NCBI GenBank assembly: GCA_017520105.1 | Contig: JAFWRL010000108.1 | Location: 1 to 19,687 of the forward strand | Direction of reading: 5' to 3' | DNA from: Fibrobacter sp. | Lineage (GTDB): Bacteria > Fibrobacterota > Fibrobacteria > Fibrobacterales > Fibrobacteraceae | Length of the DNA stretch: 19,687 nucleotides | Shown here: positions 102 to 2,132 of the stretch, piece by piece | Layout: every line of letters starts with the position of its first letter | How positions within the stretch are numbered: position 1 is the stretch's first letter | Notes under the pieces: model-generated | What the model was told of the DNA's origin: nothing | The model's input: only the letters and a program-made list of their open reading frames with translations | Database searches by the model: none | Made by a program: the position numbers and the translations under genes

Positions 102-160
102 AAATTCTAGGCTCGGAAATGCGAACGCAAGCGTTCACGCTTCACTCGCCTTACGAATTT
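102..160 (-). repeat. Palindromic element, copy A (partner at 1831-1889)
   Basis: Read on the minus strand, its first 54 bases match 1831-1884 at 44 positions without a gap. It folds into one long interrupted hairpin: outer ends AAATTC and GAATTT, then AGGC with GCCT, then an inner stem GAACGC with GCGTTC around a TT loop. Substitutions relative to copy B occur in complementary pairs at five places. It lies within about 73 bases (91-163) that are missing from the other copy of the surrounding terminator cassette, as if inserted. This could be a REP/MITE-like mobile palindrome or a structured RNA element. Confidence 0.75.
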
Positions 161-178
161 TTGTTCAGTTGCGAGCGC

Positions 179-209
179 AAAAAAAGAATCTCGACTTTCA
201 TCGAGATTC
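179..209 (-). terminator. Rho-independent terminator, minus strand
   Basis: A perfect 9-base inverted repeat (GAATCTCGA at 186-194, TCGAGATTC at 201-209) with a 6-base loop is followed on the minus strand by seven T (179-185). It is one of three terminators in series after pgk and lies just beyond the multi-hairpin block at 239-358. Confidence 0.8.
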
Positions 210-238
210 CCAAAATCAAATTTTTTCTTAGAGGCGAG

Positions 239-358
239 TGAGACAAGGTCCTAATCTCAATCTTGTAACGGAAACAAGTTTCCGACAAGATTGGATTACG
301 ACATCCTTCGACGAACAATGGGCTACGCCCATTTCCCGCACTGAAGTGCGGAGTCTCA
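239..358. repeat. Multi-hairpin structured block closed by an outer stem
   Basis: Outer arms TGAGAC (239-244) and GTCTCA (353-358) enclose three hairpins. The first spans 248-302; its core has CAATCTTGT (258-266) paired with ACAAGATTG (285-293) and CGGAAAC (269-275) paired with GTTTCCG (278-284) across a 2-base AA loop. The second is ATGGGC with GCCCAT around TAC (318-332). The third is CCGCACT with AGTGCGG around GA (336-351). In the minus direction it is followed by the terminator at 179-209. No function is known to me; it may be a small RNA, a 3' UTR structure or accumulated palindromic repeats. Confidence 0.55.
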
Positions 359-371
359 GTAGCGCGAGCAG

Positions 372-400
372 AAAAAGACCCTGCAAAAAATGCAGAGTCT
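372..400 (-). terminator. Rho-independent terminator of pgk
   Basis: On the minus strand AGACTCTGCA and TGCAGGGTCT form a 10-bp stem with one G-T wobble, a 5-base T loop and a T-run tail. It lies about 115 bases past the pgk stop and is the first of three such hairpins, so it is the best candidate for the pgk transcript end. Confidence 0.8.
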
Positions 401-513
401 ATACAAACCCAGGAATTTTTTCAGTTGCGAGCAGAGCAAGGCCGCAGACCCGAAGCCGTACAAAACGTACGGCGAGAGGTCGAGAACGCCGCTATGCGAA
501 GCAAATGGAAAAA

Positions 514-1770
514 TTACTTATCCGTGAGGAATGCGACGCCCGGAAGAACCTTCCCTTCCAGCAGTTCGAGGGAAGCGCCACCACCCGTAGAAGTGTGGGT
601 CACCTTCTTGTCAGCGCCGTACTTCTTGGCAGCCGTAGCGGTATCGCCACCACCGATCACGGTGATTGCGCCGGCAGCGGTAGCTTCGACGATTGCGTCG
701 GCCATAGCCTTGGTAGCCTTTTCAAAGGCTTCGAATTCGAACACGCCTGCAGGACCGTTCCAAACGATGGTCTTTGCGGACTTGATAGCGTTCACGAAGA
801 GCTTGGTGGATTCAGCGCCCACATCGAGGCCCATCCAGCCAGCCGGAATGCCTTCGGCGTCAGTGACAGCCTTCGTGGCAGCGTCGGCAGCGAACTTGTC
901 GGCAGCGATGTAGTCAACCGGGAGGATAATTTCCTTGCCGGCAGCCTTGGCCTTGGCCATCAGATCTGGAACGAGCTTGGCGCCTTCTTCGTCAAACAGG
1001 GAAGAACCGATTTCGATGTTGTTGAGGACCTTCTTGAAGGTGAAAGCCATGCCACCGCCGATGATGATCTTGTCGGCCTTGTCGAGGAGGTTGTTGATGA
1101 GCTGGATCTTGTCAGCGACCTTTGCACCGCCGAGGATGGCGAGGAACGGACGCGGAGGATTGTTGAGCACCTGGTCGAATGCCTTGAGTTCCTTGTTCAT
1201 GAGGAAACCGGCAGCGCGCTGCGGAAGTTCAACACCAGTCATGGAAGAGTGATCGCGGTGAGCGGTACCGAAAGCGTCGTTCACATAAACGTCAGCGAGC
1301 TTGGTGAGGCTGGCGCGGAAGGCCTTGACGGCTTCCTTGTCGGCCTTTTCCTTGGTTTCGGTGCCATCGGCGTTCTTGATCTTGCGCTTGCCTTCTTCTT
1401 CGATGTGGAAGCGGAGGTTTTCGAGGAGGATGATTTCACCCGGCTTGATAACGGCGCAGGCAGCTTCAACTTCCGGACCTACGCAGTCGGAGAGGAACTT
1501 CACCGGCTTCTTGATGAGTTCTTCGAGCTTCTTGGCAACCGGAGCGAGTGTATATTTCATGTTCTTTTCGCCATTCGGACGGCCCAGGTGGGAAGCGAGC
1601 ACGACGGCTGCACCGTGATCGAGAGCGTACTGGATGGTCGGGAGAGCGGCTTCGATACGCTTGGTGTTGGTGATTTCGCCAGTCACCTTGTCCTGCGGAA
1701 CGTTGAAGTCAACACGGATGAACACGCGCTTGCCGGCGAGTTCGAGATCTTCGATAGAAAGCTTTGCCAT
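514..1770 (-). CDS. pgk: Phosphoglycerate kinase
   Basis: Cytosolic glycolytic enzyme that transfers phosphate from 1,3-bisphosphoglycerate to ADP, giving 3-phosphoglycerate and ATP. The 418-residue product is slightly longer than the usual bacterial length (about 390-400) and complete. Family motifs are clear: RVDFNVP at residues 19-25 and SHLGRP at 60-65 in the N-terminal substrate lobe, ILGGAKV at the centre, and WNGPAGVFE, GGGDTATAAKK and a glycine-rich STGGGASLELLEGK segment in the C-terminal nucleotide lobe. A modest insertion of charged residues (around 126-145) follows the LLENLRFH motif. An AGAAGGTG ribosome-binding site lies upstream of the ATG. The gene appears monocistronic, with a terminator at 372-400. 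No neighbouring glycolysis gene is seen. Confidence 0.98.
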   Translation of the reverse strand: MAKLSIEDLELAGKRVFIRVDFNVPQDKVTGEITNTKRIEAALPTIQYALDHGAAVVLASHLGRPNGEKNMKYTLAPVAKKLEELIKKPVKFLSDCVGPEVEAACAVIKPGEIILLENLRFHIEEEGKRKIKNADGTETKEKADKEAVKAFRASLTKLADVYVNDAFGTAHRDHSSMTGVELPQRAAGFLMNKELKAFDQVLNNPPRPFLAILGGAKVADKIQLINNLLDKADKIIIGGGMAFTFKKVLNNIEIGSSLFDEEGAKLVPDLMAKAKAAGKEIILPVDYIAADKFAADAATKAVTDAEGIPAGWMGLDVGAESTKLFVNAIKSAKTIVWNGPAGVFEFEAFEKATKAMADAIVEATAAGAITVIGGGDTATAAKKYGADKKVTHTSTGGGASLELLEGKVLPGVAFLTDK

Positions 1771-2132
1771 TATAGCACCTTCTTTTTTAGGGTTAAAATT
1801 TTACGCAGGGAAATATAGCAATTAGACGACAAATACGTAAGGCGAGCGATGCATGAAAACTTGTTTTCGTATATCCGAGCCTAGTATTATTTTTCAACGA
1901 ATAATGCTTTCCATCTCCCTAATTACGGTCCCAACTTATCCAGCTTCTTTAATGTAAACTCAATTTTACAATAAATGCCATAAAATCATGTTTTTTCGTG
2001 ATATTTTCATCACACATATAAATTCTACTGCTCAAAACATCAATTCTATAGTGTAAAAAAATTATATTATTCATTATGTCTGATTTTTTTTATATATTTC
2101 CAAAAAAATTGGTACACTCGGAGTTGAATACG
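1771..2132. other. Divergent spacer between pgk and a hypothetical gene
   Basis: This 362-bp AT-rich spacer should hold the pgk promoter (reading left) and the promoter of the gene at 2133 (reading right). It also holds palindromic element copy B at 1831-1889. No promoter hexamers could be chosen with confidence in the AT-rich part, and no protein gene is seen. Confidence 0.6.
1831..1889 (+). repeat. Palindromic element, copy B (partner at 102-160)
   Basis: It matches the reverse complement of 107-160 at 44 of 54 positions without gaps. It has the same fold: outer AATAC with GTATT, then AGGC with GCCT, and an inner stem GAAAAC (1855-1860) with GTTTTC (1863-1868) around TT. The changes from copy A keep pairing intact: two base pairs in the tip stem, one at the stem base, one in the middle stem and one in the outer ends. 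It sits upstream of both pgk and the gene at 2133, in opposite orientation to copy A. Confidence 0.75.

What the first reader, a model, noticed from the sequence alone, without database searches (positions are those of the whole stretch)
102..1889. Two palindromic elements bracket pgk and differ by compensated base pairs
The minus-strand reading of 102-160 and the plus-strand reading of 1831-1889 align without gaps, 44 of 54 identical over the core. When folded, changes fall in partner positions: two tip-stem pairs (C-G to A-T and G-C to A-T), one at the stem base (G-C to A-T), one mid-stem (A-T to T-A), and one in the outer ends (T-A to A-T). The only other changes are one base in an apparent bulge and the last, distal position. 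Such covariation, seen directly, means the fold itself is kept. It could be a mobile palindrome of REP/MITE type or a regulatory RNA structure; the opposite orientation around one gene is notable.
Basis: seen in the sequence. Interest (0 to 1): 0.75.

Follow-up and report, generated by a model that had tools for sequence, protein, structure and literature searches.

The report
Mobile palindromes invading Fibrobacter genes
The two mirror-like DNA elements beside this gut bacterium's pgk gene belong to a large family of short hairpin-forming repeats that move around Fibrobacter genomes and sometimes sit, in frame, inside protein genes.

Summary
The two copies are 47 of 59 identical; 10 of their 12 differences make five compensated pairs, and five wholly changed pairs have P = 2.5e-5 by chance. 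A covariance model finds the element in 91 of 111 Fibrobacteraceae genomes (80 of 80 in the genus) and in 0 of 56 genomes of the phylum outside the family; density is about 39 per Mb in samples of two species. In 50 non-redundant copies the stems vary but mostly stay paired, while a tandem G.A/A.G and a G.T + C.A step stay fixed. Copies show no preference for the sense strand and differ between species at pgk, truB and a glycosyltransferase. Some are in-frame insertions in proteins, nearly always in one frame, often nested in other repeats. No linked Y1 transposase and no integron integrase was found. Best reading: a non-autonomous mobile palindrome, spread like REPs between genes and behaving like Rickettsia palindromic elements inside genes, moved by an unknown enzyme. 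It is not a regulatory RNA of pgk as far as the data go.

The parts
99..163 (-). Palindromic element, copy 1: outer stem, 5' bulge, core stem with tandem G.A/A.G, inner stem, tip hairpin; lies 3' of pgk on the strand of pgk
   Evidence: model R1 match, 83.5 bits; fold. This copy is one of the 25 sequences the model was built from
92..99 (-). Degenerate second hairpin (hp2) that follows copy 1
   Evidence: read by eye against the orthologous-looking GCGCTTGCGC forms
1828..1892 (+). Palindromic element, copy 2: same structure, 5' of pgk on the opposite strand, preceded by TTAGAC (1822-1827); no second hairpin seen
   Evidence: model R1 match, 71.8 bits; fold. Also one of the 25 model sequences
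514..1770 (-). pgk, phosphoglycerate kinase gene between the two copies (name from the finding; not tested against a family library)
   Evidence: ORF of 418 aa; 98-100% identical full-length relatives in many genus genomes

Best explanation
The two elements are copies of a non-autonomous mobile palindrome found, as far as searched, only in Fibrobacteraceae. The unit is about 65 nt and usually continues into a second hairpin, about 80-95 nt in all. Shown: copies are dispersed on both strands and mostly between genes; their stems change but mostly stay paired, while an imperfect core (tandem G.A/A.G, then G.T and C.A, and an A in the 5' bulge) is nearly fixed; identical copies sit in different flanks of one genome; the same gene carries the element in one species and lacks it in another; and some copies are open in frame inside protein genes. 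Inferred: the imperfect hairpin, extruded in single-stranded or cruciform DNA, is what a trans-acting enzyme recognises and copies or moves; insertion favours other hairpins and short tandem tracts (AGACGAG, AGTAGGA), which gives nested arrays; in-frame copies persist where the surrounding protein loop tolerates them. The enzyme is unknown.
For: 91 of 111 family genomes, 80 of 80 in the genus; 87 and 89 copies in G060 and G064, 18 in G028, 11 in G103, with 150 candidates scored per genome. Covariation 0.495 against 0.143 for shuffles on a sequence-only alignment of 25 copies; fixed mismatches in 46-48 of 50. Identical 65-nt elements with different flanks in G001 and near-identical sets in G077, G070 and G079. 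truB with and without the element, 78 nt apart, in G060 and G093; pgk loci with and without copies; glycosyltransferase with and without. No sense preference: 33 against 40 (P 0.48). In-frame coding copies: 7 in sense frame 0 among 173 unique copies.
Against: No mobilising enzyme was found and no transposition was seen directly. A clear target-site duplication was not established: flanking 6-mer matches exceed shuffles (12 of 141 against a mean of 2.5), but most lie in tandem tracts. Some arrays, as at pgk in L117, may be local tandem duplications. Three stem pairs pair in only 64-74% of 50 copies. Orthologous copies are not independent, and the copies studied were picked by high score or exact core.
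Confidence: 0.75

Rival explanations
1. A structured RNA element acting in transcripts (mRNA stability, attenuation), kept for its RNA fold.
For: Strong covariation, a fixed tandem G.A motif and a CTTG tip; enrichment near gene 3' ends, convergent 43 against divergent 21 (P 0.008); the strand with G.A folds better.
Against: No sense preference, 33 against 40; copy number varies widely between species of one genus, 18 to 89; many pgk loci lack it (17 of 30); no Rfam match in the window.
Confidence: 0.08
2. The compensated changes come from template switching between the arms (quasipalindrome correction), not from keeping a fold for use; the element is an inert repeat.
For: The mechanism is established for inverted repeats (recalled) and would give paired changes without selection.
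Against: It should also repair mismatches, yet G17.A51 and A18.G50 are kept in 48 of 50 and G24.T45 and C25.A44 in 46 of 50 copies. It does not explain spread.
Confidence: 0.09
3. A true REP family mobilised by a RAYT/Y1 tyrosine transposase.
For: Small, abundant, palindromic, mostly between genes and near 3' ends, as described for REPs (PMC3733652, passages); IS200-type Y1 genes exist in the genus.
Against: Y1_Tnp in only 27 of 80 genus genomes and in neither G060 nor G064, which have 87 and 89 copies; 1 of 30 Y1 loci holds a copy; no GTAG or CGTC foot conserved in the stacked copies.
Confidence: 0.06
4. Integron-like attC site, recombined as a folded single strand by a tyrosine recombinase.
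For: Imperfect hairpin with a fixed mismatched core and otherwise free, paired arms (resemblance recalled). Tyrosine recombinases are present: sub-cut-off matches in 80 of 80 genomes.
Against: No match over the integron-integrase cut-off in 80 genomes; the same sub-cut-off matches ring in 14 of 14 control genomes. Copies do not keep one orientation to genes.
Confidence: 0.02

Closest known systems
Rickettsia palindromic elements (RPE) and Wolbachia palindromic elements
   Same: Palindromic repeats found both between genes and in frame inside unrelated protein genes, with insertion hotspots where different families meet (PMC10969869, PMC2229807, PMC3767692: passages); likewise truB and the glycosyltransferase here.
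   Different: Another phylum; core unit 65 nt, about 80-95 nt with the second hairpin, against about 105-150 bp; a fixed mismatched core; nesting in other repeats. Sequence relation to RPE families was not tested.
REP sequences (GTAG and CGTC superfamilies)
   Same: Small palindromes in high copy number, mostly extragenic and near gene 3' ends, sometimes inside genes (PMC3733652, passages).
   Different: No conserved GTAG or CGTC foot, longer imperfect stem, second hairpin, no linked Y1 gene. Other repeats nested with it here, CGTCATTGCGAG...GCAATCCA, do look like CGTC REPs (my reading).
Bacterial MITEs (ERIC, RUP, Correia and others)
   Same: Short, non-autonomous, palindromic, dispersed; some make in-frame fusions (PMC10969869, passages).
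   Different: No parent insertion sequence found near copies; target-site duplication unsettled.
Folded single-strand recombination sites (integron attC, IS200/IS605 ends)
   Same: Imperfect hairpin with a fixed mismatched core and otherwise free, paired arms (recalled).
   Different: No integron integrase over the cut-off in 80 genomes; no Y1 linkage.

Membership tests
REP/RAYT | High-copy small palindrome, mostly extragenic | tested here: met
   155 of 174 copies outside predicted genes (crude caller); about 39 per Mb in two genomes
REP/RAYT | GTAG or CGTC tetranucleotide at the foot of the hairpin | tested here: not met
   no such fixed foot in 50 non-redundant copies; AGTAG or AGACG stand 5' of only some copies
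REP/RAYT | Y1 transposase gene in the genome flanked by the repeat (for GTAG REPs) | tested here: not met
   Y1 in 27 of 80 genomes; 1 of 30 Y1 loci has a copy
Rickettsia palindromic elements | In-frame insertion in unrelated protein genes | tested here: met
   truB, glycosyltransferase and others
Rickettsia palindromic elements | Length about 105-150 bp (PMC2229807, PMC10969869 passages) | tested here: not met
   65 nt core, about 80-95 nt with the second hairpin
Rickettsia palindromic elements | Sequence relation to an RPE family | not tested
   no RPE sequences were compared
MITE | Target-site duplication | tested here: inconclusive
   6-mer flank matches 12 of 141 against shuffle mean 2.5, maximum 7, mostly in tandem tracts
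MITE | Terminal repeats shared with a parent insertion sequence | tested here: inconclusive
   no transposase-like family noticed among 404 neighbour proteins, judged by eye from the 25 largest clusters; no whole-genome insertion-sequence search was made
Integron attC | Integron integrase in the genome | tested here: not met
   0 of 80 genomes over the TIGR02249 cut-off; weaker matches in 80 of 80 and in 14 of 14 controls
Integron attC | Conserved R box sequences of attC | not tested
   consensus known to me from memory only
Described RNA family (Rfam) | Score at or above a family's gathering cut-off | tested here: not met
   0 matches in the window, 4227 families

The most novel reading that the evidence does not exclude
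A class of mobile hairpin distinct from REP/RAYT and integron systems, whose fixed mismatched core (tandem G.A/A.G plus G.T/C.A) is the recognition site of an uncharacterised enzyme that acts on folded single-stranded DNA and inserts hairpins into resident hairpins. Because the unit can stay open in one frame, repeated nested insertion keeps building new peptide loops in conserved proteins such as TruB across a family of free-living gut bacteria.
Probability: 0.35. Interest if true: 0.8.

Novelty: new variant of a known kind. Interest (0 to 1): 0.62.

Why it matters
Protein-coding mobile palindromes are best known from obligate intracellular Rickettsia. Here a comparable process runs in a free-living gut genus with many related genomes, so gain and loss of inserts can be followed on nearly identical proteins, the inserted enzymes assayed, and the unknown mobilising activity sought. 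It also explains recurrent odd peptide stretches in Fibrobacter proteins.

Tried and rejected
RAYT partner: not supported. Integron-like site: not supported. Carriage on viruses, phages or plasmids: no exact match to the core pattern in viral contigs and no blastn match in phages (window copy 2) or plasmids (one copy from L009). Rfam: none in the window. A neighbour gene that could be the mobiliser: 404 neighbour proteins were clustered and the 25 largest clusters looked at by eye; none looked like a transposase, but no family library was run on them. Strand bias to replication: 47 leading against 29 lagging, counted by hand from the listed rows for G060 C1 and G064 C1 and C2 with the skew; P 0.05, rows not independent, left open. 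Structure model of TruB with the insert: mean pLDDT 42, not used. Full-text search for four flanking-repeat strings: 0 papers. Local tandem duplication explains the pgk array in L117 but not dispersed copies.

Not followed: the ileS-like and methyltransferase-like insertions were not compared with relatives that lack them; pgk sites were not aligned base by base; insertion ends are ambiguous within tandem tracts; relation to RPE sequences was not tested.

Full report
Observation. The two elements are at the stated places and alike in the way described. They are 47 of 59 identical, 44 of 54 over the first 54 positions. Each folds alone into the same structure, except that copy 2 lacks the outermost pair. 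Ten of the twelve differences make five fully compensated pairs; the other two are a bulge base and the last position. Twelve random changes hit five whole pairs with P = 2.5e-5.

Family. The window's own assembly is not held; the nearest held genome, G001, shares 27% of its sampled words. A pattern search gave first copies: 51 of 111 family genomes match, while the reversed control pattern rings in four genomes; some of the 51 are chance matches in coding sequence. I aligned 25 copies by sequence alone. Of the 30 rows I dropped four exact duplicates and one with a longer tip (L032); four further loci had been set aside before as chance matches (L018, L019, L023, L026). On that alignment 92.5% of cells pair, 15 of 23 pairs change on both sides, and the covariation score is 0.495, against 0.143 for shuffles and 0.04-0.12 for slid partners. 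The model R1 built from it matches 91 of 111 Fibrobacteraceae genomes: 80 of 80 in the window's genus, 1 of 3 in g5, 4 of 6 in g6, 1 of 1 in g7, 2 of 2 in g10, 3 of 3 in g11, and none in g2, g3, g8, g9 (one each) or g4 (12). In the phylum 91 of 167 match, none of the 56 outside the family. Per-genome counts in these calls are capped by the candidates scored. With 150 scored, G060 has 87, G064 89, G028 18 and G103 11. A spaced 800 kb sample of G060 and G064 has 31 matches at E<=0.01, partial ones included, about 39 per Mb. In the named collection 92 stretches hold the core pattern; of the 80 listed, 71 are titled Fibrobacter or Fibrobacteraceae, one Bacteroidales (L133) and eight are of other or unknown origin, which I set aside unsearched as likely chance.

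Anatomy. Stacking 65-nt copies with no alignment step (116 with unique context; 50 left after removing those sharing more than 58 of 65 positions with one already kept; copies of other length dropped) shows stems that change on both sides throughout, with 14 of the pairs printed paired in 90% or more. Against the reading, pairs 13/55, 27/42 and 29/40 pair in only 74, 64 and 70%. Mismatches stay fixed: G17.A51 and A18.G50 in 48 of 50, G24.T45 and C25.A44 in 46 of 50; A12 in the 5' bulge is kept in 48 of 50. Fixed mismatches beside free but paired stems are hard to explain by arm-to-arm copying alone. A second hairpin follows directly: a stem of 5 or more in 89 of 172 copies against 11% at random places; 148 of 172 have a stem of 4 or more, and 127 of these continue with AA or CA. 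Window copy 1 has a degenerate form of it; I see none after copy 2.

Genomic setting. With a crude gene caller, 155 of 174 copies lie outside predicted genes and 19 overlap one. The copies were picked by exact core or high score and many are orthologous, so the counts are not independent. Of 137 with a gene on both sides, 43 lie between convergent genes, 21 between divergent ones, 33 on the sense and 40 on the antisense strand between co-directional genes. The 3'-end preference is moderate (P 0.008) and there is no sense preference (P 0.48). That resembles REPs more than an RNA regulator.

Mobility. L001 and L003 of G001 hold the same element in different flanks; G077, G070 and G079 hold near-identical sets. 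pgk was found in 65 of 80 genomes and 30 loci were fetched, with Pgk 99-100% identical in these. Twelve have clear copies within the flanks of up to 1.5 kb, one a weak one (L346, E 0.006), 17 none. On the strand of pgk and 3' of it: L342, L345, L347, L350, L365, L367, L369. Opposite and 5' of it: L348, L353, L357, L361, L365, L367, L369, L370. L365 and L369 also have a copy 3' on the opposite strand. L369, like the named locus L117, has four sense copies in a row after pgk. So the window's bracket is two sites that vary separately; I did not align them base by base.

Inside proteins. Copies lie in frame in truB (G023, G026, G060, G064, G087), a glycosyltransferase (G036, G075, G087; 30 loci fetched of 76 genomes with a hit), a methyltransferase-like gene (L189), an ileS-like gene (L237) and others. 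TruB is named by sources; the other names are my reading of the translations. Among 173 unique copies, seven pass a strict coding test in sense frame 0, in five different genes. Four antisense rows also pass: two are shadows of truB, one of the ileS-like gene, and one (L238) is a copy antisense within a predicted gene. Two antisense frames are open in 129 and 117 of 173 copies and frame 0 in 56, so openness alone does not explain the use of frame 0; the numbers are small. Intergenic copies commonly have TAG in frame 0; the coding copies shown do not. The peptide search gave 378 matches in 63 of 80 genomes (sum); only the best are listed, and by my count 27 listed rows lie in frames of 165-1,196 aa without a stop inside the match.

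truB shows the process best. Nineteen proteins chosen from the 120 listed are 90-98% identical to the first; at one place they carry from nothing (304 aa in all) to about 67 residues (371 aa). In 30 of 72 genomes with a hit the alignment splits at that place, with an open frame in every listed row. In DNA, G060 reads GTAGACG, the element, then AGACGAGAGACGAGAG, where G093 has only the tract; the two stretches differ by 78 bases, 26 codons. Inserts at the same spot in other genomes are of other repeats: CGTC-like palindromes (peptides CHPGAEGDRIQ, VIASEAKQSI), EFGIRNSEFGI repeats and AGACGAG tracts. In the glycosyltransferase the element lies inside a CGTC-like repeat (GTCATCCTGAACGAACGTGAA, element, ATCCAG), while L374 has such a repeat alone. 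In L117 one copy lies inside what looks like the second hairpin of another. Flanking 6-mer matches, 12 of 141 against a shuffle mean of 2.5 and maximum of 7, mostly lie in AGACG or AGTAG tracts and do not settle whether there is a target duplication.

Mobiliser. Y1 transposases are in 27 of 80 genomes and in neither G060 nor G064; 1 of 30 of their loci holds a copy. No integron integrase passes its cut-off; weaker tyrosine-recombinase matches are in 80 of 80 genomes and 14 of 14 controls, so such enzymes remain possible. No transposase-like neighbour was noticed by eye. Nothing was found in viral, phage or plasmid collections. The enzyme remains unknown.

Literature. I read passages only. RPEs in coding genes: PMC10969869, PMC2229807, PMC3767692. 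GTAG and CGTC REPs, also inside genes, and CGTC REPs without a dedicated transposase: PMC3733652. The word Fibrobacter does not occur in the main text of PMC3733652 or PMC12306157. The S85 genome paper (PMC3079729) has no 'palindrom' in its main text and puts insertion sequences in a supplement, not read. I saw no report of this family in the listings of searches; most subscription papers are not held.

Verdict. A new family of a known kind of thing, the small mobile palindrome. It behaves like RPEs inside genes and spreads like REPs between genes, but on the features tested it is a member of neither. The surprising part is the extent and nesting of in-frame insertions in a free-living genus, with no known enzyme.

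Noticed in passing
window 45-91 and 372-418: A 47-nt direct repeat, 96% alike, 327 apart, that reads on the minus strand as a hairpin followed by T (terminator-like, by eye); similar terminator-like hairpins lie between the elements of the pgk array in L117.
   Followed up: no
window 18682-18704 and 18711-18733: Two copies of CCGACCTTGYGTCATCCTGACCC, parts of what looks like a CGTC-type repeat; the same kind of repeat is inserted in frame in truB of several genomes.
   Followed up: partly
window 19438-19464 and 19659-19685: A 27-nt direct repeat (81% alike) ending CCGGGGTCAGTTGTA or similar.
   Followed up: no
truB loci L291-L340 and glycosyltransferase loci L371-L400: One spot in each gene collects in-frame inserts from several unrelated repeat families in different species.
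   Followed up: partly
L241-L260 flanks: Flanks are full of further hairpins with tips such as CGAAGCG or CTTCG and of AGACGAG or AGTAGGA tracts, nested in one another.
   Followed up: partly
L133 3692-3756: A clear copy (79.3 bits) on a short contig titled Bacteroidales: wrong binning or transfer between phyla.
   Followed up: no
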